This document shows positions 15,433 through 32,957 of a DNA stretch of 39,582 nt, one piece after another; the stretch's first letter is position 1, and each line of letters starts with the position of its first letter. The notes beneath the pieces are model-generated. The model was not told the origin of the DNA and made no database searches. It was given only the letters and a program-made list of their open reading frames with translations. The translations under genes and the position numbers were made by a program. This DNA comes from Rhodospirillaceae bacterium (GTDB taxonomy: Bacteria; Pseudomonadota; Alphaproteobacteria; UBA8366): contig PAXN01000012.1 of assembly GCA_002715005.1 (NCBI GenBank), forward strand, positions 19,114 through 58,695, written 5' to 3'.

Positions 15433-16326
15433 CTAAGTTAAGTTTCGCGCTTCAGCTGCCTTCAGAGCATCTAGCATTGCGGCTCCTGCGTCAGATGGTG
15501 TGTCGATTATCCGAACGCCGGCTTTTTCCAGCGCTTCCCGTTTTGATGCGTAGGTACCTTTATTGCCGCTTACGATAGCGCCAGCATGTCCCATTTTCTT
15601 GCCCTCTGGGGCAGATCCGCCTGCAATAAACGAAACGACTGGTTTTCTCATAGTGGCGGCATATTTAGCAGCATGCTCTTCCATGGATCCGCCAATTTCG
15701 CCCAAAATGAACACAGCCTTAGTTTTTTCGTCTTTATCAAGGCATTTAAGTGCTTCCCTCGTAGTGGTGCCGATCACTGGATCACCGCCAATGCCGATAA
15801 ATGCTGATTGGCCGAGGCCCGCTTGTGTGATATTCAGCGAAATTAACGTTCCGAGACTTCCGCTACGCGAGATCACACCTACTTCTCCTTCACGCATGAT
15901 GTTTGTGTTGAAGGCAGGCATGAAGCCGACAAAGCATTCGCCTGGCGTCGCGACGCCGGTGGTGTTAGGTCCGATGATCTGTGTGCCGTTTGCTTTGCCA
16001 GCAGAGACAATATACATCACGTCTTGAACTGGAATATGTTCGGTAAGAATAACCAGTTTCTTGACCCCGGCTTCGATGGCATCAACGGCGCCGGATTTTG
16101 CATAAAGCGGCGGCACAAATAAGCCTGCCACATCGAAAGGCAAGTCTTTCATTGCATCAAAAGCATTGTCGAAAACGGGTACGCCGAGATGATTTTGGCC
16201 ACCTTTCTTTGGTACGATTCCACCTACAATGTTGGTGCCGTATTCCTGCATACGTTCGGTCCAAAAGGTGCCTTGCTTGCCAGTAATGCCTTGGATCATC
16301 ACTTTCTCATGTTTGCGGACGATCAT
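15433..16326 (-). CDS. SucD-like CoA ligase alpha subunit, candidate sulfoacetate-CoA ligase
   Basis: The 297-residue protein matches the succinyl-CoA synthetase alpha subunit: a CoA-binding Rossmann domain with GITGKQGT (13-20), and the phosphohistidine loop KMGHAGAIVSG with H247. It would form the NDP-forming acyl-CoA ligase with the beta subunit, whose stop codon overlaps this start by one base (TAATG). The TCA-cycle enzyme is normally encoded beside mdh or sucAB. Here the pair instead follows a SauS-like dehydrogenase and faces xsc, so activation of sulfoacetate to sulfoacetyl-CoA is the best contextual assignment. A malate thiokinase-type or housekeeping succinate role cannot be excluded by sequence alone. 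Confidence 0.85.
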   Translation of the reverse strand: MIVRKHEKVMIQGITGKQGTFWTERMQEYGTNIVGGIVPKKGGQNHLGVPVFDNAFDAMKDLPFDVAGLFVPPLYAKSGAVDAIEAGVKKLVILTEHIPVQDVMYIVSAGKANGTQIIGPNTTGVATPGECFVGFMPAFNTNIMREGEVGVISRSGSLGTLISLNITQAGLGQSAFIGIGGDPVIGTTTREALKCLDKDEKTKAVFILGEIGGSMEEHAAKYAATMRKPVVSFIAGGSAPEGKKMGHAGAIVSGNKGTYASKREALEKAGVRIIDTPSDAGAAMLDALKAAEARNLT

Positions 16327-17471
16327 TATACGACCCCTCCCTCATGTGCTTGAGCCGCATCGACAGCTGCTTTGCAGGCCTGATCCATCGTGTCATAAGG
16401 TGAGATATTTAGACGTTCTTTCAGTAGTTGACGTGCTTCCTCGTCACCGGTGCCGTGTACGGAAAAGAATACAGGCAGTGTGGGCTTTATTTCCTCCCAG
16501 GCTGCTACGATCCCCTCAGCCATAACATCACACCGCGCAAAAGCGCCGCAAAAATTGATTACCAGGCTTTTAACCTTGGGATTAGACAGAACTAACTCAA
16601 GCGCTGGTTTACCCTTGGTATAAGCTTCTCCCCCGATTTCCATGAAGTTCGCTGGAACTCCGCCATAATATTTAACCACATCCATAGTCGTCATTGTGAG
16701 GCCCGCACCATTAGCCAGGATGCCCACGGTACCTTCGAGTTCGATATATTTGAGGCCTAGTTCCTTGCCGTGCTTTTCAAGCTCAGTGGTTTTATCTGGC
16801 GTGCCGGTCTTAGCTTTCTCGAGATGCCGGACTAAGGCTGAATCGTCCATTGAGAATTTGCAATCTAGGGCTATAACTTTGTCATCTTTGGTGAGCACCA
16901 GCGGGTTAATTTCTAAAAGCTCTGCATCATTATCCAAAAAGGTATTATAGAGTTTGACCATGGTATCAGCGACCGGCGTTCTCATAGCGCCGAGATTCAG
17001 ATCGCCGAGGATTCGAATTGCTGCGGCTAGGTCGAGACCTTGACGAATATCGATTGGTTGGCGCCGTACCTGTTTGGGGTCCTGTTCCGCTGCTTCTTCT
17101 ATGTCCATACCGCCCAATGTAGAAAACAAAATCATGGGGCCACGTGATTCCGAATCATTCATAATAGCGAGGTAAAGTTCCCGGGCGATGGGCGCTTGCT
17201 CTTCGACCAACACTTTCTCGACCGTATGCGCGTCAATGGTCATTCCAATTATTTTTTTAGCCATTGCCTTGGCTTCATCTGAGTCCTTAGCGAGCTTAAT
17301 GCCGCCCGCCTTGCCGCGTTTGCCTGTTGGCACCTGCGCCTTTACGACACAGGGTCCGATCTGATCGGCCACCGCTGCCGCTTCGTCAGCTGTTTTAGCA
17401 ATAATACCTTTTGGTATGTTGATGCCCGAGGCCGCAAGCAAAGGCTTGGCGGCAAATTCTTCAAAATCCAT
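16326..17471 (-). CDS. SucC-like CoA ligase beta subunit, candidate sulfoacetate-CoA ligase
   Basis: This 381-residue protein has the ATP-grasp domain of SucC (residues 1-230, including ELLEINPLVLT near 190-200, which carries a Mg-binding Asn) and the C-terminal ligase domain (GILANGAGLTMTTMDVVKYYGG and ANFMEIGGEA). The gene starts 21 bases after the SauS-like stop and overlaps the SucD-like start, so sauS, beta and alpha form one minus-strand operon. Within it, the ligase would generate the thioester used by the acylating dehydrogenase. This differs from the single-chain SauT ligase known from Cupriavidus necator. The family is certain; the sulfoacetate assignment rests on context. Confidence 0.85.
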   Translation of the reverse strand: MDFEEFAAKPLLAASGINIPKGIIAKTADEAAAVADQIGPCVVKAQVPTGKRGKAGGIKLAKDSDEAKAMAKKIIGMTIDAHTVEKVLVEEQAPIARELYLAIMNDSESRGPMILFSTLGGMDIEEAAEQDPKQVRRQPIDIRQGLDLAAAIRILGDLNLGAMRTPVADTMVKLYNTFLDNDAELLEINPLVLTKDDKVIALDCKFSMDDSALVRHLEKAKTGTPDKTTELEKHGKELGLKYIELEGTVGILANGAGLTMTTMDVVKYYGGVPANFMEIGGEAYTKGKPALELVLSNPKVKSLVINFCGAFARCDVMAEGIVAAWEEIKPTLPVFFSVHGTGDEEARQLLKERLNISPYDTMDQACKAAVDAAQAHEGGVV

Positions 17472-17492: not shown

Positions 17493-18917
17493 TTATTTGC
17501 CGTACTTTTCCCAGTGAGCACCGAAAAGGTCCTCTTCACTAGGCCTGTCCTCGGGAATTGTTTTTACCAAATGGGTAATATTGATGAAATGGTGATAGCC
17601 AAGGTTCTCGCTGATTGAGTTTCCAGCCCAAGTCCCGCATCCCATGGTGAGAGTAAAGTCGAGGCCATTGTCAAAACTGCCACCATTTCCAAAGGTGTGG
17701 GCTTGGTTGACGAGAACACGGACGACATCGAGGCGCTCCGCCAGAATCTGCGCGTTCGCTGGATTTTTAGTGTGTATCCCTACGGAGTGACCCATGCCCT
17801 GGAAGTTGAGGACGTCTTGCACTTGATCCATGGCAGCTTCGATTGAAGGGGCACGATAAATTGTGAGCGCAAGAGATAGCTTTTCGCCGGACAATGGCCG
17901 GCCTTTACCCGCTCCTTTATCTTCCACCATGAAGAATTTAGCTTTTTTTGCTAGTTCCGGCAGACCGCAGACGTCGGCGAACACATCGGGGTCCTTGGCG
18001 AGGACATGGCGATTAAGGTGTCCGTCGACCCAAAGATTATCGAGAATCGCTTGTTTGTCTTCAGATGTACACATGTAGCCGCCGACATTCTTCATGGCGG
18101 TTATGGCATCATCATAAATATCGTCCAAAATCGTGACAGAGTTTTCTGAGGAACAAGAGGTGGCGTTATCAAAACATTTAGACGCCATGATCTTCTGGGC
18201 GGCATCGTCTAGATCGGCGCTTGAATCGATAATGACCGGGACATTACCTGCGCCGACGCCGATCGCGGGTGTGCCGCTTTTATAGGCATTACGGACGTTA
18301 TTCTGGGAGCCAGTGACGACAACCAAATCGCTGTCTTCCATAAGCTTGTTGGTGAGTGATTTGGAGATTGGCGCGGGTAGAATTTGTACAAGATTGGCAG
18401 GTAGTCCGATTTTCTCCAGTTCGTCGCGCATCAGTTTAACTACGCGACTTGTCGCCTTGAAACCCGCGGGTGAAGGGGCAATAACTACAGCATTGCGGCC
18501 TTTAATTGCCATCATACTTTTGTTGACTGGGGTGGCGCATGGGTTGGTCGATGGCACAACTGCGCCAACAACTCCGACAGGCTTAGCGTATTTGACTAGG
18601 CCTTTTTCAGGGATTTCTTCAATGATACCGACTGACTTAACCCGCATTAGATCGCGCAGGGTGCCGAAATTCTTACGCTGATTTTTAGTAATTTTATCTT
18701 CAATATTACCAAGCCCCGTGCCTTCTACAGCTAGTTTAGCGGTTTCACGGGCATGCTCTGGCTTATAGATTGACCAGCAAAGGGCGGTTACAGCTTCATC
18801 GACGCGGGCTTGGTCTGCGCTTGCAAATTGTGCCATAGCGCGACGGCCATTTATCATCAATTCATCGATGATAGCGTCGTCGTCTCTTTCGGTGGTGGAT
18901 TGCTGAGCTTGGCTCAT
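17493..18917 (-). CDS. sauS: Acylating aldehyde dehydrogenase, SauS-like sulfoacetaldehyde dehydrogenase
   Basis: The 474-residue protein is a CoA-acylating aldehyde dehydrogenase of the EutE/AdhE/SauS group. The catalytic Cys is C255 in NATSCSSENS, the nucleotide-binding stretch includes VTGSQNNVRNAYKSGTPAIGVGAGNVP (201-227), and PSTNPCATP (122-130) is typical of the acylating type. It would reduce sulfoacetyl-CoA to sulfoacetaldehyde with NAD(P)H. A frame extends to 18941, but the ATG at 18917 has GGGAG about seven to eight bases upstream. It is the promoter-proximal gene of the minus arm, back to back with xsc, whose substrate is sulfoacetaldehyde; that pairing is the strongest argument for SauS rather than a propionaldehyde or acetaldehyde enzyme. 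Confidence 0.75.
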   Translation of the reverse strand: MSQAQQSTTERDDDAIIDELMINGRRAMAQFASADQARVDEAVTALCWSIYKPEHARETAKLAVEGTGLGNIEDKITKNQRKNFGTLRDLMRVKSVGIIEEIPEKGLVKYAKPVGVVGAVVPSTNPCATPVNKSMMAIKGRNAVVIAPSPAGFKATSRVVKLMRDELEKIGLPANLVQILPAPISKSLTNKLMEDSDLVVVTGSQNNVRNAYKSGTPAIGVGAGNVPVIIDSSADLDDAAQKIMASKCFDNATSCSSENSVTILDDIYDDAITAMKNVGGYMCTSEDKQAILDNLWVDGHLNRHVLAKDPDVFADVCGLPELAKKAKFFMVEDKGAGKGRPLSGEKLSLALTIYRAPSIEAAMDQVQDVLNFQGMGHSVGIHTKNPANAQILAERLDVVRVLVNQAHTFGNGGSFDNGLDFTLTMGCGTWAGNSISENLGYHHFINITHLVKTIPEDRPSEEDLFGAHWEKYGK

Positions 18918-18989
18918 TAATTTTCTCCCTAACGAATTCATGGAACTATAGGCTAATAAACATCAAAAAAAACTATTTTGGAAAAAATG

Positions 18990-19226: not shown

Positions 19227-20999
19227 ATGACCCAGATGACAACAGAAGAGGCTTTTGTAAAAGTATTGCAACGGCATGGTATCGAGCACGCTTTTGGTAT
19301 TATTGGTTCAGCAATGATGCCGGTATCTGATCTGTTTCCAAAAGCGGGTATCACCTTCTGGGACTGCGCGCATGAGTGCAATGCCGGCATGATGGCTGAC
19401 GGGTTTACCCGCTCTAGCGGCAAGATGAGTATGATGATTGCTCAGAACGGACCCGGGATCACGAATTTCGTCACGCCTGTGAAGACTGCCTATTGGAACC
19501 ACACGCCGCTCCTATTGGTTACACCGCAAGCGGCCAATAAGACTATGGGGCAAGGTGGGTTCCAAGAAATTCCCCAAATGGCCTTGTTCGCGGATATGGT
19601 TTGCTATCAGGAAGAAGTGCGCGACCCGACCCGCGTCGCGGAAGTTCTGAACAGAGTGATTGAAAAAGCATGGCGCGGCAGTGCACCTGCGCAGATTAAC
19701 GTACCGCGCGATTATTGGACGCAGGTTATCGATATTGAAATTCCTGAGACTATTAAAATTGAACGGCCTTCGGGCGGTATGGACGCGATCGCTGATGCGG
19801 CAAAGCTTTTGTCCGAAGCAAAGTTTCCGGTCATCTTGAATGGTGCTGGAGTGGTATTGAGCGACGGTATTCCAGCGTCTGCTGCTCTGGCAGAGAAGCT
19901 CAGTGCACCGGTATGTTGCGGTTACCAACATAATGATGCTTTCCCCGGCAACCATCCTTTAGCTGCGGGCCCGCTGGGGTATAATGGGTCGAAAGCGGCA
20001 ATGGAGCTGATTTCGAAAGCTGATGTGGTATTAGCTCTTGGAACACGCCTTAATCCGTTCTCTACATTACCGGGCTACGGAATTGATTATTGGCCAAAAG
20101 ACGCAAAGGTTATTCAGGTTGATGTTAATTCGGATCGGATAGGGTTAACCAAAAAAGTTACGGTCGCTATTCAGGGCGATGCACGTCAGGTGGCTGAACA
20201 GATTAGCAGTTGTCTGTCCCCAACGGCCGGCGATAGCAATCGAGACGATCGTGAGGCGCTCATCCATCAAACCAAATCCGCGTGGCAACAACAATTGTCT
20301 TCTATGGATCATGAAGACGATGACCCTGGCACGACTTGGAATGAGCGCAGCCGTAATCGTGAACCAGAAAAAATGTCGCCTCGTATGGCATGGCGCGCTA
20401 TTCAGGCTTCGCTTCCAAGGGAAGCTATTATTTCATCTGATATTGGTAATAACTGTGCAATCGGCAATGCATACCCGAGCTTCGATGAGGGACGGAAATA
20501 TTTAGCACCGGGGCTTTTTGGTCCCTGTGGTTACGGTTTTCCCGCTATTCTAGGTGCGAAGATCGCTAACTCGGACACACCTGTCGTTGGTTTTGCTGGT
20601 GACGGTGCGTTTGGCATCTCCATGAATGAGATGACTGCGTGTGGTCGCGACCCATGGCCGCCAATCACCATGATTATTTTCCGCAACTATCAATGGGGCG
20701 CAGAGAAACGCAATACGACGCTTTGGTATCAAGATAATTTCGTTGGCACAGAACTTGATCTCGATGTCCAGTATGCCAACATTGCCGAAGCGTGCGGCGT
20801 TAACGGTGTCCAAGTTACATCAATGCAGGAATTGACCGATCAGTTGGCGGTTGCTGTGGACGTGCAGATGAACAAAAAAGAGACTACATTTATAGAAGTA
20901 ATCCTTAACCAGGAATTGGGGGAACCCTTCCGCCGAGATGCCATGAAGGCACCTGTTGAAGTTGCAGGTATTGATGGGTCGGACATGCGACCACAATAG
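19227..20999 (+). CDS. xsc: Sulfoacetaldehyde acetyltransferase
   Basis: Xsc (EC 2.3.3.15) uses ThDP and phosphate to convert sulfoacetaldehyde to acetyl phosphate and sulfite. The 590-residue sequence carries family-specific stretches: FGIIGSAMMPVSDLFPKAGI (start region), FWDCAHECNAGMMADGFTR with the cofactor-activating E50, QAANKTMGQGGFQE (101-114) and PRDYWTQVID, plus the ThDP-binding GDG at 458-460 and NYQWGAEKRN (487-496). GGGGAGG eight bases before the ATG at 19227 is an excellent ribosome-binding site. It is divergent from sauS across two palindromes. No phosphotransacetylase or sulfite exporter gene follows, so acetyl phosphate and sulfite must be handled by genes elsewhere or, for sulfite, possibly by the ComA-like protein downstream. 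Confidence 0.95.
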   Translation: MTQMTTEEAFVKVLQRHGIEHAFGIIGSAMMPVSDLFPKAGITFWDCAHECNAGMMADGFTRSSGKMSMMIAQNGPGITNFVTPVKTAYWNHTPLLLVTPQAANKTMGQGGFQEIPQMALFADMVCYQEEVRDPTRVAEVLNRVIEKAWRGSAPAQINVPRDYWTQVIDIEIPETIKIERPSGGMDAIADAAKLLSEAKFPVILNGAGVVLSDGIPASAALAEKLSAPVCCGYQHNDAFPGNHPLAAGPLGYNGSKAAMELISKADVVLALGTRLNPFSTLPGYGIDYWPKDAKVIQVDVNSDRIGLTKKVTVAIQGDARQVAEQISSCLSPTAGDSNRDDREALIHQTKSAWQQQLSSMDHEDDDPGTTWNERSRNREPEKMSPRMAWRAIQASLPREAIISSDIGNNCAIGNAYPSFDEGRKYLAPGLFGPCGYGFPAILGAKIANSDTPVVGFAGDGAFGISMNEMTACGRDPWPPITMIIFRNYQWGAEKRNTTLWYQDNFVGTELDLDVQYANIAEACGVNGVQVTSMQELTDQLAVAVDVQMNKKETTFIEVILNQELGEPFRRDAMKAPVEVAGIDGSDMRPQ

Positions 21000-21560
21000 T
21001 CATAATTGGTGGCCGGTATTGTTGGAACGCTGCCGCTTGGTTCAACCTAAATTTGGTCCGTCGGCGAAAGTCGGCGGGTCATTTATTTTATGCTTTGGCC
21101 TGAATCGTAACCCTATATAAATGTCTTGCCAGACTTCTATTGAGTTCACTTTTTATGCGATACCGGCCTTACTCATTAGTTCAATAGAATTTTTTGCCGA
21201 GCCTTTGCCTTCTTTCGTAGCAGCAATATCAATTGTGCGCACCCCAAGAGTTATCTAAAGGCCTTGAGGAGCATTTGAGAGCTCTCGTAGCTTATTCCTG
21301 ATGCATAACTCGAACTAATAAAGCGGTTTTGACATCATATTGCCGGCCAAATATGATCGTGAGTTGAGTGGCCTCCAAAATTATTGCTGCGTCGGTAAGA
21401 AATACAGGCGGTAGAGATGGAGATTACTAACCGCCTTTTTGTTATGGCGATTGGACTATCTTGGAAGACGTATGGCTCGTCTAGAAAGCAGACATGGTGC
21501 ATAGCGATCCATGCAGAGGTTGGATGTTCCGGTTGCTTCTGAATTTCGAGGAAAATGACA
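21000..21560. other. Intergenic region between xsc and the DUF3604 gene
   Basis: No complete gene is supported here. After xsc there is a weak hairpin (CCGTCGG with TCGGCGG, 21058-21078, two wobble pairs) followed by a T-rich stretch, a poor terminator candidate. On the minus strand, 21153-21254 encodes a 33-residue protein-like end (ITLGVRTIDIAATKEG...) preceded by a stop, perhaps the C-terminal remnant of a lost gene that I do not recognise. A better terminator lies at 21406-21443. The remaining bases before 21561 may hold the promoter of the DUF3604 operon. Confidence 0.4.
21406..21443 (+). terminator. Possible Rho-independent terminator upstream of the DUF3604 gene
   Basis: AGGCGGT (21406-21412) pairs with ACCGCCT (21430-21436) across a 17-base loop that can pair a little further, and TTTTTGTT follows directly. 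It lies 407 bases after xsc and would isolate the downstream operon from xsc read-through. It could equally be an attenuator for the downstream genes. Confidence 0.5.
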
Positions 21561-23894
21561 ATGAGTGAACAACCGATGGGAAGTCCCGACGATGCTGCAG
21601 GCGGAGCGTTAGGTGGTTTGGTTAGCAAACCTATTAAGCCGACAATCCCCTCGGAAGAACTCGGTAGTATTTCATTATCCCCTAGCGGATCCTTTGAAGC
21701 AGGCTCCTACCAGACATTTAAACTTGTCTACACGGCTGGTAAATTCGGCATCGATGATAGCGGCTCTATGCGCATCTGTTTTCGCTTTGCATCCGATCAA
21801 ACCCGCCCACAATTTGATGACCCGAAATGGGCTAACTACACTACGGTGGCTGCTAGCAACAATGCGGTGCTTGAATATAACTACGACCCCAAGGGCAATG
21901 TGCGTCCGTGGGATCGTTGCCTTTATATAAAGGTCGTGAAAGGCTTTTTGCGGGAAGGCGATACCATTACTGTTACATTTGGTGACACAAGCCAAGGCTC
22001 GCCTGGTATGCGGCTGCAAACATTTCTCGAGGATACATTTGAGTTTCACACTCTGGTCGATCCTATCGCGACTTTTAATTATCAGCCGATGCCAGAGCAG
22101 CCGGTTATAAATATTGTTGCCGGACCACCTGAAGATTGGATTGCAGTCCTACCAACGTTTCGCCGCGTTAATGAATCCTTTGCATTAAAATTTAAAGGTG
22201 AGGATAAATGGGGTAATCCATCGGATCAAACTGACGCGACTTTCGAGTTGAGGGCGAGCGCACCAGTTAATGGCTTGCCCGAAACTATTACGATTAAGCC
22301 AGGAGAGGTCACAGTCAACGTCAGCGAACTTTCAGTGAGTAAGGCCTGTGAGGTGATCATCGATTTAGTGGATTGTGATAATATTATTGCTGCACAGAGT
22401 AATCCGCTCCGCATCGTGCAAGAATCCGAACTAGTCCATTTTTGGGGTGATATGCACGGTCAGTCGGAAGAAACGATCGGCAATAATAGTGCCAGACAGT
22501 ATTTTGGATTTGCGCGTGATAAAGCTTTTATTGATGCGACCGGTCATCAAGGTAATGATTTCCAGATCACCAACGAATTTTGGGGCGAACTCGACCGTCT
22601 ATCGGCGGAGTTTAATGTCGATGGTAGCTTTGTCGTGCTACCTGGATATGAATGGTCAGGTAATACCGGACTGGGTGGAGATCGAAATATCTATTTTTCC
22701 GAAGAGGGCCGTCAAATTCGACGTTCATCTCATGCACTGGTTGAAGACCAAAGCGATATTGATACGGATTGCAACAGTGCTACTGAATTATTTGAAGCAT
22801 TGACCGATCATAAGGAATTTGACGTGGTCAGCTATGCTCATTGCGGCGGGCGTTATGCAGATGTGAAACTGGCCCATGACGGACATTTTGAGAAATCTAT
22901 GGAAATTCACTCCTCTTGGGGAACTTTCGAGTGGCTAGTGCAGGATGCTCTCGAGATGGGGTACCGCTGCGGCATTGTCTCTAATTCGGATGGGCACAAG
23001 GGGCGTCCGGGTGCAAGTTATCCCGGTGCCTCTTTGTTTGGAGCCGTTGGCGGGCTTACATGCTTTTTGATGCCTGAGCTTTCTCGCAAAGCAATGCTGG
23101 ATTGTATACGCAAGCGCCACCATTATGGGACGACCGGTGGACATGGCGGGCGTATGATTATTGATGTGCAGGCCAGTTTTGATAAAGAAGGAACTCTTTA
23201 TCACGATGATCCTAACCTTGGACCAGCTGAGGGCTCAGTAACTCAATCGGCGATCATGGGCGATATTGTGCATTTTCCAGAAGGTGGCGCAAAATTTTCA
23301 GCGGATATCGTAGGTGCAGCGCCTATTGAGCGTATCGATATTTTCAATGGGCTCGATCACATAGAAACCATCCGGCCTTATGAAAAAGAAGAACTTGGCA
23401 ATCGTATTCGTGTGGTTTGGGAAGGTGCGGAGTATCGGGGCCGGTTTCGCCAGGTGATTTGGGATGGCTCGGCACAACTATCAGATAACAAGATAGTCGA
23501 CGCGTCTACTATCAACTTCTTCAATCGGGATAAGACCCTAGATCGCGTTGGCGATAGCGGTCTTGCATGGCGTGCGCTAACGACCGGCAACATTGGAGGT
23601 TTCGATATGTGGGTGGAAGATCCTTATGGCGGCACGCTAAAGCTGGAAACGCCGCTAGTAAAGTGCGGCGTGCCATTGGAAGATATTGGCTACGAAGATG
23701 AAGTTTTTGATAATAGCGGTGTTTTGCCCCGTTTGTTAAAAATTTTTCGACTTCCAACGGAGAACACACATCAGGCATTTAGCTTTGAGCGCGCAATCGA
23801 ACTAAAAGATCAAGGTGATAACGCTATTTATATTAGGCTGACCCAAGAAGATGGAACACTCGCTTGGACTAGCCCGATTTATATCTACCGATGA
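21561..23894 (+). CDS. DUF3604/PHP-like metal-dependent hydrolase
   Basis: The 777-residue protein has an N-terminal beta-rich part (about 30-285, Ig-like or sandwich-like) and then a PHP-like amidohydrolase-type domain of the DUF3604 kind. Probable metal ligands are in HFWGDMHGQSEETIG (about 293-307), ATGHQGNDF, LPGYEWSGN, VVSYAHCGGRYAD (about 422-434), IHSSWGTFEW and SNSDGHKGRPG (about 474-484). There is no signal peptide. GAGGA at 21548-21552 favours the ATG at 21561 over the one at 21555. The stop codon overlaps the ATG of the ComA-like gene (ATGA), so the two are translationally coupled. Family proteins are metal-dependent hydrolases of unsettled substrate; a phosphoesterase role working with the ComA-like enzyme is speculation. 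Confidence 0.8.
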   Translation: MSEQPMGSPDDAAGGALGGLVSKPIKPTIPSEELGSISLSPSGSFEAGSYQTFKLVYTAGKFGIDDSGSMRICFRFASDQTRPQFDDPKWANYTTVAASNNAVLEYNYDPKGNVRPWDRCLYIKVVKGFLREGDTITVTFGDTSQGSPGMRLQTFLEDTFEFHTLVDPIATFNYQPMPEQPVINIVAGPPEDWIAVLPTFRRVNESFALKFKGEDKWGNPSDQTDATFELRASAPVNGLPETITIKPGEVTVNVSELSVSKACEVIIDLVDCDNIIAAQSNPLRIVQESELVHFWGDMHGQSEETIGNNSARQYFGFARDKAFIDATGHQGNDFQITNEFWGELDRLSAEFNVDGSFVVLPGYEWSGNTGLGGDRNIYFSEEGRQIRRSSHALVEDQSDIDTDCNSATELFEALTDHKEFDVVSYAHCGGRYADVKLAHDGHFEKSMEIHSSWGTFEWLVQDALEMGYRCGIVSNSDGHKGRPGASYPGASLFGAVGGLTCFLMPELSRKAMLDCIRKRHHYGTTGGHGGRMIIDVQASFDKEGTLYHDDPNLGPAEGSVTQSAIMGDIVHFPEGGAKFSADIVGAAPIERIDIFNGLDHIETIRPYEKEELGNRIRVVWEGAEYRGRFRQVIWDGSAQLSDNKIVDASTINFFNRDKTLDRVGDSGLAWRALTTGNIGGFDMWVEDPYGGTLKLETPLVKCGVPLEDIGYEDEVFDNSGVLPRLLKIFRLPTENTHQAFSFERAIELKDQGDNAIYIRLTQEDGTLAWTSPIYIYR

Positions 23895-24700
23895 ACAAAC
23901 AACCTTTTGATCTGGTGCCATTAGCGGAAGGCCGAAGTACCGTTAAACCACGTAAGACTGGTCTTACAATGGTAGTTGATTTTGGTGAGCCCATAGAGCA
24001 CGTAAGTTCGTTATTGGGAGTTGCTGGTCCTTATGTCGATCTTTGGAAAATCGCGGTCGGCTCGTCGAGGCTGTATCAAGACGATTATTTTTCCCGGAAA
24101 CTTGAGCTCTTGGACAAGCATCAGGCTCGCAGTTTCATTGGTGGTCAGTTTCTGGAATATGTGTTTGCAACACAAGGCTGGCAGGGTGTGAAGGTGTTTC
24201 TCGCCGAGGCTAAGCGGCTTGGAGTTAGTGCCATCGAGGTTTCTGATAATTGCGTGCCTCTTTCAGATGAAGAACGAACGCGCCTGATTAAAATGGCTAT
24301 TGATTTAGGTATTGAAGTACATGGTGAAGTTGGTTCGAAGAATTCAAAGCAGGCCGTCTCAGAACTGGTTGATCAGGCTAATATTTGCATAAATGCTGGT
24401 TGTGAGATTGTTTTGGTTGAGGCGGCCGAATTGGTACTTGACGGAGAAGTGCAGGCCGATTTGGTGCAGGCGGTGCAGGACGGAATTGATCCTGCACACT
24501 TATTGGTAGAACTGACGGGCTTTTGGATAAAGGGAACCACAAAGAACGATGTTTTTGAGATGATGAAGTTTCTCGTATTTACCTTTGGTTCGGATGCTAA
24601 TATTGCCAATGTACCGTCGGATATGGTGATGGTCTTAGAAGGTTTGCGCAATGGTCTTGGTGTCGTCGGACCTTCGGAGCGTTTCGAGGTAAGAGTGTGA
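23891..24700 (+). CDS. Phosphosulfolactate synthase (ComA) family protein
   Basis: The 269-residue protein matches the ComA family (PEP + sulfite to (2R)-phospho-3-sulfolactate, the first step of coenzyme M synthesis in methanogens), a TIM-barrel also represented by plant HSA32 and bacterial YitD-like proteins. Family-like segments are GLTMVVDFG (24-32), YVDLWKIAVGSS (48-59), FIGGQFLEYVF (82-92), AIEVSDN (114-120) and HGEVGSK (144-150). In the methanogen enzyme I recall a DKG motif in the first strand where this protein has DFG, so catalysis may differ. The start overlaps the DUF3604 stop by four bases. Its place downstream of xsc, a sulfite producer, makes a sulfite- or sulfonate-related role attractive, but function is inferred. 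Confidence 0.8.
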   Translation: MNKQPFDLVPLAEGRSTVKPRKTGLTMVVDFGEPIEHVSSLLGVAGPYVDLWKIAVGSSRLYQDDYFSRKLELLDKHQARSFIGGQFLEYVFATQGWQGVKVFLAEAKRLGVSAIEVSDNCVPLSDEERTRLIKMAIDLGIEVHGEVGSKNSKQAVSELVDQANICINAGCEIVLVEAAELVLDGEVQADLVQAVQDGIDPAHLLVELTGFWIKGTTKNDVFEMMKFLVFTFGSDANIANVPSDMVMVLEGLRNGLGVVGPSERFEVRV

Positions 24701-24719: not shown

Positions 24720-25337
24720 ATGATGAAAATATGGGGACGCAAGAACTCGAGTAATGTTCGTAAAGTACTTTGGTGTGCAGCCGAACTGGGGCTTCAATTT
24801 GAACGTGCGGATGTGGGCGGAGACTTTGGTAAAAATGATGAGAAATGGTATCTCGAAATGAATCCAAATGGGCTTGTCCCAACCATCGAAATTGATGGGA
24901 ACATCCTATGGGAATCAAACACAATAATCCGATATTTATGTTGTAAGCATAGCGCTGGCGATATGTATCCGACGGATGCTGGTGAGCGGGCAAAGGCTGA
25001 GATGTGGATGGATTGGCACTTGTCTGTCGCGACACCTAAGACCGGCCCGATATTCCGAGGTATCGTCCATACGCCAGAGGATAAGCGAGACTATGCTGCC
25101 ATGAAAGCGGCAGGCGAAGAACTCACCAAATCGTATCAAATGTTGGAAAAACAACTTGCGGGAAAGGATTATATCATGGGTGATAATCTAACCATGGTCG
25201 ACTGCGCCCTTGGTATGCATGTGCACCGATATTACGCGTTGGTTGCAGATAAGCCTGCATTGAAAAATATGGACGTTTGGTATGAACGGCTAAAAGGGCG
25301 TCCGGCATTTGTCGAGCATGTCATTCCCTTTCCTTAG
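24720..25337 (+). CDS. Glutathione S-transferase family protein
   Basis: The 205-residue protein has an N-terminal thioredoxin-like GST domain (1-80) with KIWGRKNSSNVRKVLWCAAELG at the glutathione-site helix, NPNGLVPTIEIDG containing the cis-proline, and ESNTIIRYL; the all-helical C-terminal domain has GDNLTMVDCALG. The likely catalytic residue is one of the Ser residues near 10-11. It starts 19 bases after the ComA-like stop, so it probably belongs to the same operon. The substrate is unknown; a glutathione-dependent detoxification or thiol-transfer step linked to the sulfonate genes is only a contextual idea. Confidence 0.85.
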   Translation: MMKIWGRKNSSNVRKVLWCAAELGLQFERADVGGDFGKNDEKWYLEMNPNGLVPTIEIDGNILWESNTIIRYLCCKHSAGDMYPTDAGERAKAEMWMDWHLSVATPKTGPIFRGIVHTPEDKRDYAAMKAAGEELTKSYQMLEKQLAGKDYIMGDNLTMVDCALGMHVHRYYALVADKPALKNMDVWYERLKGRPAFVEHVIPFP

Positions 25338-25456
25338 GAGATAAAATAACCCCGCATGTAGAGTGGATATGGACGGATGCCGCGTCTATTTGTCATGGTT
25401 ACAAGCGAAAGGCTTTTACGTATTGTGCGATGCAGCATAAAAGTTATTATTGGATG

Positions 25457-25468
25457 TCTAACGTTAGA
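25457..25468. promoter_or_regulatory. 12-base perfect palindrome upstream of aapJ
   Basis: TCTAACGTTAGA is a perfect inverted repeat lying 54 bases before the aapJ start in the 185-base gap after the GST gene. It could be an operator for the transporter operon, but a palindrome of this size can arise by chance. Confidence 0.3.
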
Positions 25469-25522
25469 GGGGATTGCACCATAACATTTGTTGTAATTAC
25501 CAAAACCTGGGAGTTAAAAAAT

Positions 25523-26557: not shown

Positions 26558-26574
26558 GTTATGTTTCTGGAAAT

Positions 26575-26612
26575 GCCGTCCGGCTGAACGGGTCGGGCGG
26601 CGTCTCCCTTTT
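26575..26612 (+). terminator. Intercistronic hairpin between aapJ and aapQ
   Basis: GCCGTCCG (26575-26582) pairs with CGGGCGGC (26594-26601) over eight base pairs, one of them a wobble, and a short T-run (TTTT, 26609-26612) follows. Located 18 bases after the aapJ stop, it probably stabilises the aapJ transcript or partly terminates it, so that binding protein exceeds permease, as is common in ABC operons. Confidence 0.55.
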
Positions 26613-26652
26613 AGTTGGCAATCAAATGCACTTCATGAAGGCCTAATGGGCT

Positions 26653-27831
26653 ATGGCCGGCCAGCCTCAAGTAAACAAAAGCGATAATTCTATCCTGAAT
26701 CGTATTGCCTTCCGGGGCATTGTCTACCAGGTTTTGCTTGGGACAGGTATCGCGCTGCTTGGTTGGTATTTATACACCAATATAAATGAGAATTTAGCTC
26801 GACAGAATATTGCCACGGGCTGGGATTTCTTAAATGAGCCGGCTGGTTTCGGTATTAGTGAATCGATAATTCCGTTTGATTCCAGTCAAACCTTTGCGCG
26901 GATCTTTCTCGCCGGTATTTTGAATACGCTGCATGTGGCTTTCTTTGGCATTATTTTGGCGACAATACTAGGCGTCGCTATGGGGATTGCTCGGGTTTCC
27001 CGTAATTGGTTGGTTGCGAAACTAGCCTCCGGTTATGTGGAGATTTGTCGCAACGTTCCGGTTGTGCTTCATGTAATATTTTGGTCATCGATTATCCGAC
27101 TCTTACCGCACCCCCGGCAAGCTATCGAGCCATTTGACGGCGCTTTTATCTCTAATCGAGGCTTGATGCTGCCGTTCCCTTTCGACCATTCTCTCTATCC
27201 ATGGATCGCGTTGGCACTTGTAGTTGGAATTAGTGGCGCGGCCGTTTTTAACCGCTGGGCACGTATCAGACGCGAGAAGACTGGCAGATACATAGCGACT
27301 TTTTGGCCTAGTATCGGAATCACTCTGGGTTTGCCGCTAGTAGTTTGGCTAATTGGTGGGGCACCGCTAAGGTGGGATTTCCCAGTTTTGCGTGGCTTTA
27401 ACTATCAAGGTGGTATGGCGTTGTCGCCGGAATATATAGCACTGCTGATCGGGATCACCGTGTATACGGCAGCTTTTATTGCGGAAATCGTACGTTCCGG
27501 TATTGAATCCATACACGCAGGTCAGATAGAAGCGGCTAATGCGCTTGGGCTTCGGCGTGGTTTTGTCATGCGTTACATCACAATTCCCCAGGCGCTGAGG
27601 GTTATTGTACCACCTACTGCGAGCCAATTTTTGAGCCTCACCAAAAATAGCTCTCTCGGCGTCCTCATCGGCTATCCGGATCTGGTTAATATAGGTAACA
27701 CGTCGTTGAACCAAACAGGTCAAGCCGTCGAGGCCATCGCAATAATGATGCTCGTCTACCTTACAATTAGTCTGACGATTTCGGCCTGCATGAATCTTTA
27801 TAACAATCTCGTTGCCATCAAGGAGCGGTAG
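26653..27831 (+). CDS. aapQ: General L-amino acid ABC transporter, permease AapQ
   Basis: The 392-residue inner-membrane protein has an N-terminal span (VLLGTGIALLGWYLY), a His/Glu/Gln-type permease domain with several hydrophobic spans, and the EAA-type cytoplasmic loop IEAANALGLRRGFVMRYITIPQALRVIVPP that docks to the ATPase. The long spacing between spans, with a periplasmic stretch, is characteristic of AapQ rather than of short His-family permeases. It starts after an intercistronic hairpin and its stop lies two bases before aapM. It forms the transmembrane heterodimer with AapM. Confidence 0.87.
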   Translation: MAGQPQVNKSDNSILNRIAFRGIVYQVLLGTGIALLGWYLYTNINENLARQNIATGWDFLNEPAGFGISESIIPFDSSQTFARIFLAGILNTLHVAFFGIILATILGVAMGIARVSRNWLVAKLASGYVEICRNVPVVLHVIFWSSIIRLLPHPRQAIEPFDGAFISNRGLMLPFPFDHSLYPWIALALVVGISGAAVFNRWARIRREKTGRYIATFWPSIGITLGLPLVVWLIGGAPLRWDFPVLRGFNYQGGMALSPEYIALLIGITVYTAAFIAEIVRSGIESIHAGQIEAANALGLRRGFVMRYITIPQALRVIVPPTASQFLSLTKNSSLGVLIGYPDLVNIGNTSLNQTGQAVEAIAIMMLVYLTISLTISACMNLYNNLVAIKER

Positions 27832-27833
27832 GG

Positions 27834-28952
27834 ATGGCCGATATAGAGTTGAACCGGATGCGGAATGGCAAGCGCAAACAGGCGCAAGCGCCGGTAGCAG
27901 AAAAGGTTGCCGCGTTGCGCTGGGTGCGGGAGAATTTTTTTAGTACCATCGGGAATACCATCCTTACCGTCATCATTGGTGTCTTCATCATAAAATTCAT
28001 CCCACCGTTCATTCAGTGGGCATTTTTCGATGCGGTCTGGGGAGCGCAAACCCACGAAGTCTGTCGGGCATCGGAAGGTGCTTGCTGGGCGGTAATCACG
28101 GAAAAGCACCGGCCAATGTTATTCGGGCTTTATCCCTATGAAGAGCATTGGCGTTTGGTTGTCGCCCTAATTGTTTATGTTGGAGCGATTTGTATTACGC
28201 TAACGCGGCGATTCTGGCATGTGAAAATTCTTGTGCCACTCTGGATTGCCAATCTCGCTATCTGCTGCCTGCTGATGTGGGGTGGTATCCTTGGGCTCAC
28301 CTTTGTTGAGACTCAGCAATGGGGTGGTTTGCCGCTGACTATGGTGCTGTTTACGGGCACTGTGGTATTCGGCATGCCAATCGCGGTTTTACTCGCGCTA
28401 GGAAGGCGTTCGCATCTGCCGGGTATCAAAGCAGTATGTGTTGCGGCCATTGAATGCATGCGAGGCGTTCCGCTGATCACCATCTTGTTTGTTGCCGTTA
28501 ACGTCTTTCCGTTATTTTTGCCACAAGGGCTTGAGTTCGATGTCATGGTCCGAGTTATGGCTGGGATGGCGATTTTCTTTGCATGTTATCAGGCGGAGGT
28601 TATTCGCGGTGGTTTACAGGCAATTCCGCGCGGGCAATATGAAGCAGCCGAAGCCACAGGGCTCGGTTACTGGCAAATGATGATACGTATTATCCTGCCT
28701 CAGGCGCTTCGTGTTTGCTTGCCCGGAATCGTGAATCACATCATCGCTGCTTTTAAAAACACGTCATATGTTTTGATAATTGGCCTGTTCGATATTTTGA
28801 GTGCTACGACCGCTGTCATGCAAGATCCGCTTTGGCGCTTATTCACGATAGAGGCCTATCTCTTTGTTGCACTCATATATTTTATTTTTTGTTTTGCGCT
28901 CTCCAAATATAGCCAGAATTTGGAGCAATGGCTCGATCAAGGTCGGCGTTAG
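27834..28952 (+). CDS. aapM: General L-amino acid ABC transporter, permease AapM
   Basis: The 372-residue permease has a charged N-terminus, a first span near residues 40-60 (TILTVIIGVFIIKFIPPFI), further spans, and the conserved loop YEAAEATGLGYWQMMIRIILPQALRVCLPG. MRGVPLITILFVAVNVFPLFLP matches the characteristic AapM/BztC segment. It follows aapQ by two bases and precedes aapP by 19. Together with AapQ it makes the membrane channel. Confidence 0.87.
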   Translation: MADIELNRMRNGKRKQAQAPVAEKVAALRWVRENFFSTIGNTILTVIIGVFIIKFIPPFIQWAFFDAVWGAQTHEVCRASEGACWAVITEKHRPMLFGLYPYEEHWRLVVALIVYVGAICITLTRRFWHVKILVPLWIANLAICCLLMWGGILGLTFVETQQWGGLPLTMVLFTGTVVFGMPIAVLLALGRRSHLPGIKAVCVAAIECMRGVPLITILFVAVNVFPLFLPQGLEFDVMVRVMAGMAIFFACYQAEVIRGGLQAIPRGQYEAAEATGLGYWQMMIRIILPQALRVCLPGIVNHIIAAFKNTSYVLIIGLFDILSATTAVMQDPLWRLFTIEAYLFVALIYFIFCFALSKYSQNLEQWLDQGRR

Positions 28953-28971
28953 AAATGATTAGGGAAATTTT

Positions 28972-29736
28972 ATGACTGAAGCTATCCGAGTAGCCACTAA
29001 CGAAACTGTCATTGAGTTGAAAGACGTCAACAAGTGGTATGGCGAGTTTCAAGCTTTGGCGGATATCAATTTGTCGGTCAATAAGGGCGAACGTGTCGTG
29101 GTCTGCGGCCCCTCGGGCTCTGGTAAGTCTACCATGATCCGCTGTATTAACAGGCTTGAAGTCCATCAGCGCGGTACGATCATCGTTGATGGGATAGAAT
29201 TGACCGATAATCTCAAAAATATTGAGGCGATCCGTAGTGAAGTCGGCATGGTGTTCCAATCCTTCAATTTGTTCCCCCATATGCGAGTAGTCGACAATTT
29301 GACGCTCGCACCCATGTTAGTCCGCAAAATGCCGAAAAAGGACGCGGAGGAGATCGCCATGCAATACCTTGAGCGGGTCCAAATACCCGAACAGGCTTAT
29401 AAGTTTCCGGGACAATTATCCGGCGGTCAACAGCAGCGCGTCGCTATTGCACGTTCGCTCTGCATGCAGCCGAAAATAATGCTATTCGACGAGCCCACCT
29501 CCGCCCTTGACCCGGAAATGATTAAGGAAGTGCTTGACGTGATGGTGGAATTGGCGGAAGACGGCATGACTATGATCGTGGTGACCCATGAAATGGGCTT
29601 TGCTAAAACGGTGGCTGACACGATGGTATTTATGGATCAGGGCGAGATTGTTGAGACTGCTGAGCCGGGTAAATTTTTCACCAAACCGGATAGCGAACGG
29701 ACGCAATTGTTCTTAAGTCAGATCCTCACGCATTAG
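28972..29736 (+). CDS. aapP: General L-amino acid ABC transporter, ATP-binding protein
   Basis: The 254-residue ATPase has Walker [10 protein letters not shown] (46-54), the Q-loop [10 protein letters not shown] (94-103), the signature LSGGQQQR (149-156), Walker [13 protein letters not shown] (169-180) and the H-loop VVTHEMGF. It is the last gene of aapJQMP and powers amino-acid import. Its 3' end overlaps the convergent epimerase gene by four bases; no terminator is seen there. Confidence 0.9.
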
Positions 29737-30723: not shown

Positions 30724-32385
30724 TTAAACTCCGGCATTGGAACCGCCGGTCATGAGCCTTTCGTTCTCTGCTGTCGTTCGATATCCCTCAAACTCAAGAG
30801 GGACTTCAATGATGGTGGTTTTATCTGCCCTCAGGGCTTCCGCAATAGCTGGGGCCAGACCTTCAATTTCTGGCACCCGCTTGCCGTGAAAGCCGAAGGC
30901 TTCGGCTAATTTGACATAGTCCGGGTTAGTTAACACCGTGCCGATGTGGCGATTATAGCGCGATTCTTGGCGCTGGCGGATTATGGAGTAGCCGCCATTG
31001 TTAAATATAACGACGGGCATAGATAGGTTATACTGTTGCAACGTTGCTAATTCCCCACAGCCAAACATGAAACCGCCATCACCGCAGAAAGCAACAATTT
31101 CACGTTCTGGGAAAGCGGCCTTAGCACCAACGGCAGCATGGAAGGCAAAGCCCATAGAACCAAACGTATTGGCGAATAGAAATTGGCCAGGCTGATAGCA
31201 CTCGAAGCCAAAACGGGTCCAGTGTCCCATAATGGATTGGGATGCAACTATGGCATTTCGCGATAGAATAGAGCGAATATCTCGCATCGCCTGGAAAACT
31301 TCTGGCTGTTTGGCTTTCATTTCAGCGAAAGCCGCAGTCTTGAGTTTTTGTATTGCCTCAAGGCGACTTTCCGCAGCGATATAGCCAGTCTTTTCCAGGT
31401 TATGCATTAATGCTTGCAGTACCACCCGAGCGTCGCCTTCAATAGTTACTTTGGCTTTATAGTTCTTGCCGAATTCCGCCGGGTCGATATCACAATGGAT
31501 AAGGTTTTCGGGCATGGGAAGAGTCCATTGCTTAGTGGCGCGCTGCGAAAAACGTGTACCGATGGCAAGCACGGCATCCCCTTTGGCGAGCACCTCGTTT
31601 TGTAATGTGTCGCTCACTGTCAGCAGATTTCCAAGCGCAAGCGGATGATCGTCGGGTAGAACACCTTTGGAGCCGTTGGTGCAAAATACTGGGGCTTGCA
31701 GTATTTCCGCCATAGCCTTTACTTCGGCGGAGGCAGCGGCTTTGACTGCGCCGCCACCAATCCAAAGAATGGGCCGTTTTGCCTGTTTTAAGAGTTCGGT
31801 TGCATCTTTAATTTCAGATTGATTTGCCGGTGACGGGGTGACATTGGCTGGTGGTAAAATTGTAAAATCTGCTTCACCATGAAGAAAATCAGTTGGAATT
31901 TCGAGAAAGACTGGTCGTGGCCGGCCGGTGCGCATGCGTCGGTAAGCCTCATTAATGGCTTCGGGGATTTCGCCAATATCTTGTACCGTGTGTTGCCAAG
32001 AAGAGACGGGTACGAACATTTCGCTTTGTGCTGGACCGTCATGGTAAAAGCCCTTTTCCTTACCCATATGCTCGCTCAGGATTTGTGTTGAGATATGAAG
32101 CATCGGCCAAGATTCGTTATAGGCTTCGCCCATGGCGCAGGCGACGCCCGCAGCGCCTGGCCCGACTGTGGTTAGTACTACACCAGGATTGCCTGATACA
32201 CGGGTGTAGGCATCAGCCATGTGACCGGCCGAATCTTCATTGCGCGGCGTGATGAGTTTAATCGGGCTATCGTAAAGTGCATCGTAGGTGGGCATGAGGT
32301 GGCTGCCTAGCACTCCGTAGGCGACCTGAGCGCCCTCTGCTTCTAAGGACTGGACGACTGCCTGTCCACCGGTTAGCTTTGGCAT
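30724..32385 (-). CDS. Thiamine-diphosphate-dependent enzyme, acetolactate-synthase-like (second type)
   Basis: The 553-residue protein has the usual N-terminal cofactor-activating Glu (E50 in PRNEDSAGHMADAYTR), a central domain, and GDGGFMFG (435-442) with NNGGYS (462-467) for ThDP and Mg binding. It is a clearly different subtype from the 769-2403 enzyme and from Xsc. The reaction could be carboligation or decarboxylation of a 2-keto acid; no small regulatory subunit is nearby. GGAGGG precedes the ATG. It is divergent from two small paralogous genes of unknown function, with 152 bases between them, and precedes the epimerase gene in the same operon. Confidence 0.85.
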   Translation of the reverse strand: MPKLTGGQAVVQSLEAEGAQVAYGVLGSHLMPTYDALYDSPIKLITPRNEDSAGHMADAYTRVSGNPGVVLTTVGPGAAGVACAMGEAYNESWPMLHISTQILSEHMGKEKGFYHDGPAQSEMFVPVSSWQHTVQDIGEIPEAINEAYRRMRTGRPRPVFLEIPTDFLHGEADFTILPPANVTPSPANQSEIKDATELLKQAKRPILWIGGGAVKAAASAEVKAMAEILQAPVFCTNGSKGVLPDDHPLALGNLLTVSDTLQNEVLAKGDAVLAIGTRFSQRATKQWTLPMPENLIHCDIDPAEFGKNYKAKVTIEGDARVVLQALMHNLEKTGYIAAESRLEAIQKLKTAAFAEMKAKQPEVFQAMRDIRSILSRNAIVASQSIMGHWTRFGFECYQPGQFLFANTFGSMGFAFHAAVGAKAAFPEREIVAFCGDGGFMFGCGELATLQQYNLSMPVVIFNNGGYSIIRQRQESRYNRHIGTVLTNPDYVKLAEAFGFHGKRVPEIEGLAPAIAEALRADKTTIIEVPLEFEGYRTTAENERLMTGGSNAGV

Positions 32386-32537
32386 AGCGCTTAGCCCTCC
32401 ACGATTGTATTTGAGAATATTTACTTTAACGGTTTATATCGTAATCTGCTGTTTATAAAGAACATAAGTGTTGAGTTTCGGCATATTGGATGGCTCTCAT
32501 CGGGCATCGTATCTCAAAACAAAAAAAGGTGGATGGC

Positions 32538-32948
32538 ATGGACTTAGAGACACATTTAGCGCTAGCCCAGCGGTGGGACGTTACGCTCTCGAAGATCGAT
32601 CCACAAGAAGACCACACGGCAGCCATCGAGATTTGTATGATGATGGGAACCACCCTATTAAACGCTATTTTTCACAAACGCGGTATTCGTGAGGAAGCTT
32701 ACGACCAAAATCACACTACGCGCCCTCCGATCCCGCCTGAAGCCGAAGCACGTATTACACCGGATGTTCGAGCGATCATGGATAATCTGCATTATGTGGA
32801 ACAGATGCGCGGTCTCCACTGCCGTGGTATTACCGGTAAAATTCGCGATGCGCGGGACCTACCCGAATGGAATCCGGAGGTTTCAATGAGATGTATTACC
32901 ATAATCCGCGATATGCAGGCCTTCACCGAACAAGTTATGGACGAGTAG
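32538..32948 (+). CDS. Unrecognised 136-residue protein, tandem paralogue A
   Basis: I do not recognise the family. The start at 32538 is chosen because GGTGG precedes it and because it makes the protein the same length as, and gaplessly aligned to, the paralogue nine bases downstream. My ungapped count gives 75 identical positions of 136. The sequence is mainly helical in character, without signal peptide or membrane segments. The conserved polar residues cluster in NAxFHKRGI, DQNHT, EARITPDVR, LHCR and the QAFTE tail, so a metal site made of His, Asp and Cys is possible. It is divergent from a ThDP-enzyme operon. Confidence 0.75.
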   Translation: MDLETHLALAQRWDVTLSKIDPQEDHTAAIEICMMMGTTLLNAIFHKRGIREEAYDQNHTTRPPIPPEAEARITPDVRAIMDNLHYVEQMRGLHCRGITGKIRDARDLPEWNPEVSMRCITIIRDMQAFTEQVMDE

Positions 32949-32957
32949 GGGGCGGGT

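What the first reader, a model, noticed from the sequence alone, without database searches (positions are those of the whole stretch)
21561..24700. Translationally coupled DUF3604 hydrolase and ComA-family protein next to xsc: possible undescribed sulfonate module
Seen: the hydrolase and ComA-like genes overlap in ATGA and lie just downstream of xsc. Known: ComA condenses sulfite with PEP; DUF3604/PHP-type proteins are metal-dependent hydrolases; the normal next enzyme, ComB phosphatase, is not in the window. Inference: a hydrolase could replace ComB, so sulfite released by Xsc might be recaptured as sulfolactate, or the pair may act on another phosphorylated or sulfonated compound.
Basis: partly seen in the sequence, partly recalled or inferred. 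Interest (0 to 1): 0.65.

Follow-up and report, generated by a model that had tools for sequence, protein, structure and literature searches.

The report
ComA-like and DUF3604 organosulfur gene module
Two poorly understood enzyme genes, a metal-dependent hydrolase (DUF3604) and a cousin of the coenzyme M enzyme ComA, sit together here beside sulfoacetate-degrading genes and keep turning up together in many marine bacteria, which points to an undescribed step in breaking down sulfur-containing organic compounds, but not the sulfite-recapture step first proposed.

Summary
The pair is real: DUF3604 (21561-23894) overlaps the ComA-family gene (23891-24700) in ATGA, 561 bp downstream of xsc, next to sauS and sauCD-like genes.

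The association recurs. DUF3604 lies within 10 kb of a window-type ComA in 23 of 46 related loci, and 43 of 45 of their genomes carry both. A conserved Hyphomicrobiales operon is GntR-ComA-TauT-type ABC-TauD-DUF3604-sulfatase.

The ComB-replacement reading is not supported:
- All 72 members of the window's ComA subfamily have Ala where the reference phosphosulfolactate (PSL) synthases have Arg170. The window protein scores half the archaeal ComA cut-off.
- ComB is missing from the host and from 36 of 43 genomes with this ComA.
- In a sister genus DUF3604 follows xsc without ComA.
- Terminator- and promoter-like sites separate xsc from the pair.

Best reading: a divergent ComA-fold lyase/synthase, with metal-type acidic residues kept and one oxyanion-site residue lost, works in an uncharacterised organosulfur pathway with a CehA/McbA-like metallohydrolase that probably frees the substrate from a conjugate. 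The substrate is unknown. Association: strong. Mechanism: inferred.

The parts
21561..23894 (+). DUF3604 / CehA-McbA-like metallohydrolase, 777 aa (779 aa from 21555)
   Evidence: PF12228 24.2 bits; NF038032 22.8 bits, below cut-off; invariant D297, H299, H329, E364, H427, H450, D477, H479 in 17 relatives (numbering of the 21561 start)
23891..24700 (+). ComA-family TIM barrel of the 'AEL' subfamily, 269 aa
   Evidence: PF02679 166 bits; AF2 model pLDDT 88, best PDB match 1qwg/9cm1/1u83; Arg170 replaced by Ala
23891..23894 (+). ATGA stop/start overlap of DUF3604 and ComA
   Evidence: sequence
24720..25337 (+). glutathione S-transferase-like gene, 19 bp after ComA
   Evidence: PF13409/PF00043
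25430..26557 (+). amino-acid-type ABC substrate-binding protein, same apparent operon
   Evidence: PF00497, TIGR01096 below cut-off
26653..29736 (+). two ABC permeases and ATPase of the same apparent operon (26653-27831, 27834-28952, 28972-29736)
   Evidence: ORFs with 2-95 bp gaps; assignment from the translated sequence
19227..20999 (+). xsc, sulfoacetaldehyde acetyltransferase
   Evidence: TIGR03457 929 bits, above cut-off
17493..18941 (-). sauS, acylating sulfoacetaldehyde dehydrogenase
   Evidence: NF047625 758 bits, above cut-off
15433..17471 (-). SucCD-like ADP-forming CoA ligase pair, probably sulfoacetate-CoA ligase (SauCD)
   Evidence: NF001913/TIGR01019; adjacency to sauS conserved in four relatives
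21054..21081 (+). terminator-like hairpin with T tail just after xsc
   Evidence: number of such sites not above shuffles
21329..21357 (+). sigma-70-like promoter TTGACA-17-TATGAT upstream of DUF3604
   Evidence: 11 of 12 matches; number of such sites not above shuffles
21406..21440 (+). second hairpin with T run between the promoter-like site and DUF3604 (possible attenuator)
   Evidence: z = -2.6
30724..32385 (-). second TPP-dependent enzyme; borders DUF3604 directly in two sister-genus genomes

Best explanation
The pair belongs to a recurrent, undescribed organosulfur catabolic gene set. DUF3604 is a cytoplasmic PHP/CehA-McbA-type metallohydrolase. It most likely cleaves an ester, amide or carbamate bond in an imported conjugate and so releases a small sulfonate (in this genome plausibly one that feeds sulfoacetate/sulfoacetaldehyde and Xsc). 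The ComA-family protein keeps the ComA barrel and its acidic/lysine site, so it should still do metal-assisted enolate chemistry (addition or elimination of sulfite or a similar group next to a carboxylate). Having lost Arg170, it probably acts on a substrate other than phosphoenolpyruvate/phosphosulfolactate, possibly in the eliminating (sulfite-releasing) direction. In the window genus the ComA-GST-ABC block was probably added to an older Xsc-DUF3604 backbone. Shown: gene order, recurrence, residue changes, absence of ComB. Inferred: the bond cleaved, the direction, and the substrate.
For: Recurrent linkage: DUF3604 in 23 of 46 loci; 43 of 45 genomes carry both; within the order 14/14 ComA+ versus 15/30 ComA- genomes have DUF3604, Fisher p = 0.0013; linkage changes 10 times on the DUF3604 tree, at least 8 forced by supported branches. 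Organosulfur context: TauT/SsuT-type ABC, TauD-type dioxygenase (taurine dioxygenase model 223 bits, below its cut-off) and a sulfatase with CxPxR motif in conserved operons; haloarchaeal plasmid with LLM monooxygenases, sulfite exporter and sulfite oxidase; xsc-sauS-sauCD in the window and sister genus. ComA subfamily: D20, E103, S105, E133, K137, E168, E171, E205 kept (71-72 of 72), R170 to A in 72/72, T76 to Q in 71/72. DUF3604: invariant PHP-like H/D/E set and full-domain NF038032 matches in relatives.
Against: No substrate is identified. TauD genes are abundant in these genomes, which weakens that neighbour. The window's own operon has no TauD or sulfatase but an amino-acid-type ABC transporter and a GST. 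NF038032 scores are far below cut-off. The DUF3604 fold search returned only Ig-like beta domains, so the PHP fold is not structurally confirmed. The linkage sample was drawn with ComA as the query, which biases linked/unlinked counts.
Confidence: 0.42

Rival explanations
1. One reading: ComA fixes Xsc-derived sulfite onto PEP and DUF3604 replaces ComB as the phosphosulfolactate phosphatase, giving sulfolactate.
For: Adjacent to xsc; ATGA coupling; ComB missing in host and in 36 of 43 genomes; PHP-type proteins include phosphatases (general knowledge).
Against: Arg170 lost; TIGR03849 143.9 bits against cut-off 280; DUF3604 follows xsc without ComA in the sister genus; DUF3604 lacks this ComA in many genomes; terminator/promoter-like sites after xsc; losing PEP to sulfolactate makes little sense beside a sulfoacetate-degrading set.
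Confidence: 0.06
2. DUF3604 and ComA act independently: DUF3604 is an upstream hydrolase of the Xsc/sulfoacetate pathway, and ComA belongs to the inserted GST-ABC block acting on an imported amino-acid- or glutathione-like sulfur compound; the overlap is incidental.
For: Xsc-DUF3604-TPP2 backbone without ComA in two sister-genus genomes, Xsc-DUF3604 in a third; ComA-GST-ABC-epimerase block lies exactly between DUF3604 and TPP2 in the window; GGT genes beside ComA in about 10 loci and beside DUF3604 in 3.
Against: Independent linkage of the two genes elsewhere, including direct adjacency in L106, L138 and L159; near-complete co-occurrence.
Confidence: 0.27
3. The ComA subfamily has no sulfur chemistry at all: PF02679 is a broad TIM-barrel family whose five paralogues in this genome do unrelated reactions, and the pair degrades a phosphonate, carbamate or amino-acid derivative.
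For: Five paralogues in G000, each in a different subfamily, none with Arg170; transporter types near DUF3604 vary (TTT, BCAA, dipeptide, amino acid).
Against: Sulfatase, TauT-type transporter, TauD, xsc, sulfite exporter and sulfite oxidase neighbours in several lineages.
Confidence: 0.2

Closest known systems
ComA phosphosulfolactate synthase (M. jannaschii 1QWG, B. subtilis YitD 1U83, Xanthobacter Xaut_4872)
   Same: Same barrel (TM-score by target length 0.83-0.88); D20, E103, S105, E133, K137, E168, E171 and E205 kept
   Different: Arg170 to Ala, Thr76 to Gln, Ser172 to Leu; scores half the archaeal equivalog cut-off; no ComB partner; found in degradative gene clusters
CehA/McbA carbamate hydrolases (NF038032)
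   Same: Weak but full-length domain match in relatives; conserved His/Asp/Glu set of PHP type; published key histidines of CehA and McbA (PMC8292978)
   Different: Far below family cut-off; DxH in place of HxH in the first motif; long N- and C-terminal beta domains; different gene context
SauSCD-Xsc sulfoacetate degradation (Cupriavidus, Bilophila, sponge symbionts; PMC12625764, PMC12890257)
   Same: Window has sauS, ADP-forming CoA-ligase pair and xsc in one cluster
   Different: No recognised TTT (SauXYZ) transporter among the window genes examined; adds DUF3604, ComA-like, GST and amino-acid ABC genes
Bacterial coenzyme M biosynthesis cluster (Xanthobacter pXAUT01)
   Same: Contains a PF02679 gene
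   Different: The Xanthobacter gene keeps Arg170 and is followed by argininosuccinate lyase- and fumarate lyase-family genes, not seen in the window

Membership tests
ComA phosphosulfolactate synthase | PF02679 domain and ComA barrel | tested here: met
   166 bits; AF2/Foldseek best match 1qwg, 9cm1, 1u83
ComA phosphosulfolactate synthase | Archaeal ComA equivalog model TIGR03849 | tested here: not met
   143.9 bits, cut-off 280
ComA phosphosulfolactate synthase | Site residues of the reference enzymes: acidic set plus Lys137 | tested here: met
   72/72 for E103, S105, E133, K137, E168, E171, E205; 71/72 for D20
ComA phosphosulfolactate synthase | Arg170 of the ExRES motif | tested here: not met
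   Ala in the window and all 72 AEL-subfamily sequences
ComA phosphosulfolactate synthase | ComB phosphatase in the same genome | tested here: not met
   absent from G000 and 36 of 43 genomes
ComA phosphosulfolactate synthase | Sulfite addition to PEP | not testable with these tools
   needs an enzyme assay
CehA/McbA-type metallohydrolase | PF12228 DUF3604 gathering score | tested here: met
   24.2 against 20.4 bits
CehA/McbA-type metallohydrolase | NF038032 curated cut-off | tested here: not met
   22.8-29.5 bits against 80
CehA/McbA-type metallohydrolase | PHP-type His/Asp/Glu metal ligands | tested here: inconclusive
   H299, H329, E364, H427, H450, D477, H479 invariant, but no structural match to a PHP fold was found
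SauS-SauCD-Xsc sulfoacetate degradation | SauS and Xsc above equivalog cut-offs | tested here: met
   758 against 600; 929 against 676
SauS-SauCD-Xsc sulfoacetate degradation | Dedicated sulfoacetate-CoA ligase | tested here: inconclusive
   adjacent SucCD-like pair scores as succinate-CoA ligase; position next to sauS is the only evidence for sulfoacetate
SauS-SauCD-Xsc sulfoacetate degradation | TTT or MFS sulfoacetate transporter next to it | tested here: inconclusive
   none recognised among the window genes examined; not every window ORF was scanned

The most novel reading that the evidence does not exclude
The AEL subfamily of ComA is an undescribed sulfite lyase/synthase that handles a non-phosphorylated carboxylated sulfonate, and together with DUF3604, a sulfatase and a TauT/TauD set it forms a widespread marine pathway for degrading a still unknown sulfated/sulfonated metabolite that feeds the sulfoacetate-Xsc route.
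Probability: 0.25. Interest if true: 0.75.

Novelty: new variant of a known kind. Interest (0 to 1): 0.5.

Why it matters
Public annotation calls every PF02679 protein a phosphosulfolactate synthase. The residue and context data show that most of the relatives gathered here, including all five copies in this genome, lack an invariant residue of the reference enzymes, so those annotations are unsafe. The recurrent gene set gives a concrete, testable handle on an unknown part of marine organosulfur turnover, with a cultured carrier (Chelativorans sp. AA-79) available.

Tried and rejected
A PDB sequence search with DUF3604 alone or as a profile found nothing. The fold search with the DUF3604 model (pLDDT 78) returned only Ig-like beta-domain proteins with low TM-scores, so it was not used for function. 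The ComA structure paper (Wise et al. 2003) and one further paper, looked up under a guessed DOI for bacterial coenzyme M biosynthesis, were not held in the library, so no functional role is claimed for Arg170 beyond its invariance. DUF3604 as the ComB replacement was rejected on distribution and operon structure. Coenzyme M biosynthesis was considered and rejected: no lyase partners as in Xanthobacter. The first neighbourhood maps lost genes to antisense ORFs and were redone with forced reference genes. Literature searches found no paper joining phosphosulfolactate synthase with xsc, and one incidental mention of DUF3604.

Full report
OBSERVATION. Pfam assigns DUF3604 (24.2 bits, cut-off 20.4) and ComA (166 bits, cut-off 25.2). 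Xsc (19227-20999) and SauS (17493-18941, minus strand) pass their NCBIfam equivalog cut-offs. A SucCD-like CoA-ligase pair (15433-17471) lies beside sauS. This resembles the SauSCD sulfoacetate route described for Bilophila and for sponge symbionts (PMC12890257, PMC12625764). Downstream of ComA, in the same direction with gaps of 2-95 bp, follow a GST and a four-gene amino-acid-type ABC transporter (24720-29736). The apparent transcription unit therefore runs DUF3604-ComA-GST-ABC, while the 561 bp after xsc hold a terminator-like hairpin (21054-21081), an 11/12 promoter-like site (21329-21357) and a further hairpin with a T run. The number of such sites is not above shuffled expectation, so this is suggestive only.

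SELECTION. Against the same-genus MAG (L102), dN/dS is 0.05 for DUF3604, 0.15 for ComA and 0.01 for Xsc. The sibling's DUF3604 has two in-frame stops (codons 241 and 441 of the aligned gene) and its ComA a stop at codon 263. These may be recent inactivation or assembly errors.

RECURRENCE. The window genome (G000, 3.66 Mb, 64 contigs) has five PF02679 genes. In its order (44 genomes), close relatives of the window ComA (50% identity or more) occur in 14, and DUF3604 in 29. All 14 ComA carriers have DUF3604, against 15 of the other 30 (Fisher p = 0.0013; relatedness not corrected for). A scan of species genomes with the ComA alignment gave 59 named loci. Leaving out the sibling and the distant (under 40% identity) or partial hits leaves 46; DUF3604 lies in 23 of them within the 10 kb flank, although many contigs end early. 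DUF3604 is present in 43 of 45 of the corresponding genomes. A crude null (about 1.5 copies per 4.2 Mb) predicts under 1% per genome. On a DUF3604 tree the linked state needs 10 changes, at least 8 of them forced by supported branches. The sample was drawn from ComA hits, so it overstates how often DUF3604 is linked; it does not explain the repeated linkage. Directly adjacent pairs occur in the window genus, L106, L138 and L159.

ARRANGEMENTS. Hyphomicrobiales share an operon GntR-ComA-SBP-ATPase-permease-permease-TauD-DUF3604-sulfatase (L128, L132, L141, L142, L143, L146; shorter or broken copies in L133, L135, L144), with DUF3604 and sulfatase overlapping by 1-4 bases in most. Rhodospirillaceae-type MAGs keep most of the same genes in another order, with an S/N-oxide-reductase-type molybdoenzyme and a HAD-II gene (L105, L107, L108, L110, L113, L121). 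The transporter matches TauT/SsuT models (NF008421, NF008470; below cut-off), the dioxygenase the taurine dioxygenase model (223 bits, cut-off 313), and the sulfatase the choline-sulfatase model (288 bits, cut-off 433), with a CVPAR motif. Gamma-glutamyltranspeptidase genes recur beside ComA in about ten loci and beside DUF3604 in three. On plasmids, Chelativorans sp. AA-79 has both genes 9 kb apart. Natrinema halophilum has DUF3604 and a more distant PF02679 gene amid LLM monooxygenases, TauE/SafE sulfite exporter and sulfite oxidase. DUF3604 alone occurs with TTT, BCAA or ABC transporters in Sulfitobacter, Pseudosulfitobacter and Agrobacterium vitis.

SYNTENY WITH THE SISTER GENUS. In G041-G043 (L084-L086) DUF3604 (75-76% identity) directly follows xsc with sauS and the ligase pair conserved, and no ComA is there; in G041 and G043 the second TPP enzyme comes next. 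In the window, the ComA-GST-ABC-epimerase block lies exactly between DUF3604 and that TPP enzyme. The simplest reading is that ComA was added to an older Xsc-DUF3604 backbone; loss in the sister genus is not excluded. Another genome (G054) has a second DUF3604 copy 10.5 kb from xsc.

ComA ACTIVE SITE. Aligned with M. jannaschii ComA numbering, the window ComA and all 72 members of its subfamily keep E103, S105, E133, K137, E168, E171 and E205, and 71 of 72 keep D20. Arg170, present in M. jannaschii ComA, B. subtilis YitD and the Xanthobacter coenzyme M cluster protein, is Ala in 72/72; Thr76 is Gln in 71/72. The other four paralogues in G000 have E, G, S or Q there. The three Arg170 proteins separate from the rest on the tree with 97% SH-aLRT support. 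The model of the window protein matches 1qwg, 9cm1 and 1u83 far better than any other fold. The scaffold and acidic site are ComA-like; phosphosulfolactate synthase identity is not established and is made less likely. I could not read the structure paper, so the role of Arg170 in substrate binding is inference.

DUF3604. The alignment shows invariant WxDxHGQ, GHQxND, GYEW, AHxGGRYAD, ExHSxWGT and SDGHxGR motifs, an H/D/E set as expected of PHP-type metallohydrolases. Relatives match the CehA/McbA model over its length but at 26-30 bits against a cut-off of 80. Published work names essential histidines in CehA and in the PHP-like domain of McbA, which hydrolyse carbamates (PMC8292978). No signal peptide is apparent by eye. 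The fold search did not confirm the PHP fold.

INTERPRETATION. The specific proposal (sulfite recapture as phosphosulfolactate with DUF3604 in place of ComB) fits poorly: Arg170 and the equivalog score argue against the first step; ComB is absent in most carriers, but DUF3604 is too widely distributed, and too often tied to xsc or a sulfatase without ComA, to be its dedicated substitute. I commit to a degradative role: DUF3604 as a hydrolase of an imported conjugate, and ComA-AEL as a ComA-like addition/elimination enzyme on a different, probably non-phosphorylated, substrate. The first is moderately supported, the second weakly.

Noticed in passing
G000 contigs C41, C5, C14, C44 (L036-L039) and window 23891-24700: Five PF02679 (ComA-family) paralogues in one bacterial genome, each of a different subfamily, none with Arg170; database names calling them phosphosulfolactate synthase are probably wrong.
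   Followed up: partly
L102 / L040 (sibling MAG, PBOR01000031): DUF3604 is interrupted by an in-frame TAG and TGA, and ComA ends 7 residues early, although the gene otherwise looks under purifying selection.
   Followed up: partly
window 12767-14272 and its copies in L084-L086: A type I phosphodiesterase/alkaline-phosphatase-superfamily gene (PF01663) is conserved on the far side of the sauS/sauCD/IclR block in the sister genus, so it may belong to the sulfoacetate locus.
   Followed up: partly
L103, L104, L114, L119, L120, L122, L123, L126, L131 (near ComA); L095, L097, L100 (next to DUF3604): Gamma-glutamyltranspeptidase-family genes recur beside either gene, and the window operon has a GST: a possible glutathione-like substrate theme.
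   Followed up: no
L167 (Arthrobacter sp. ERGS1:01 plasmid), 5440-14115: An AEL-type ComA in an actinobacterial operon with a TauT-like ABC transporter, a CocE/NonD hydrolase, thioredoxin/thioredoxin reductase and a UGSC (seleno)protein.
   Followed up: no
L152, L154 (heparinase II/III-like); L153, L155, L157 (FAD oxidoreductase-GcvT fusion); L148, L150, L152, L154, L156 (M14 carboxypeptidase and DUF6785): More distant ComA relatives (35-39%) in Gemmatimonadota, Latescibacterota, Aminicenantes and Acidobacteriota sit with entirely different genes.
   Followed up: no
window 30724-32385 and 32490-33368: A second TPP-dependent enzyme followed by two small genes without Pfam match is syntenic with xsc-DUF3604 in G041 and G043 (L086, L085).
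   Followed up: no
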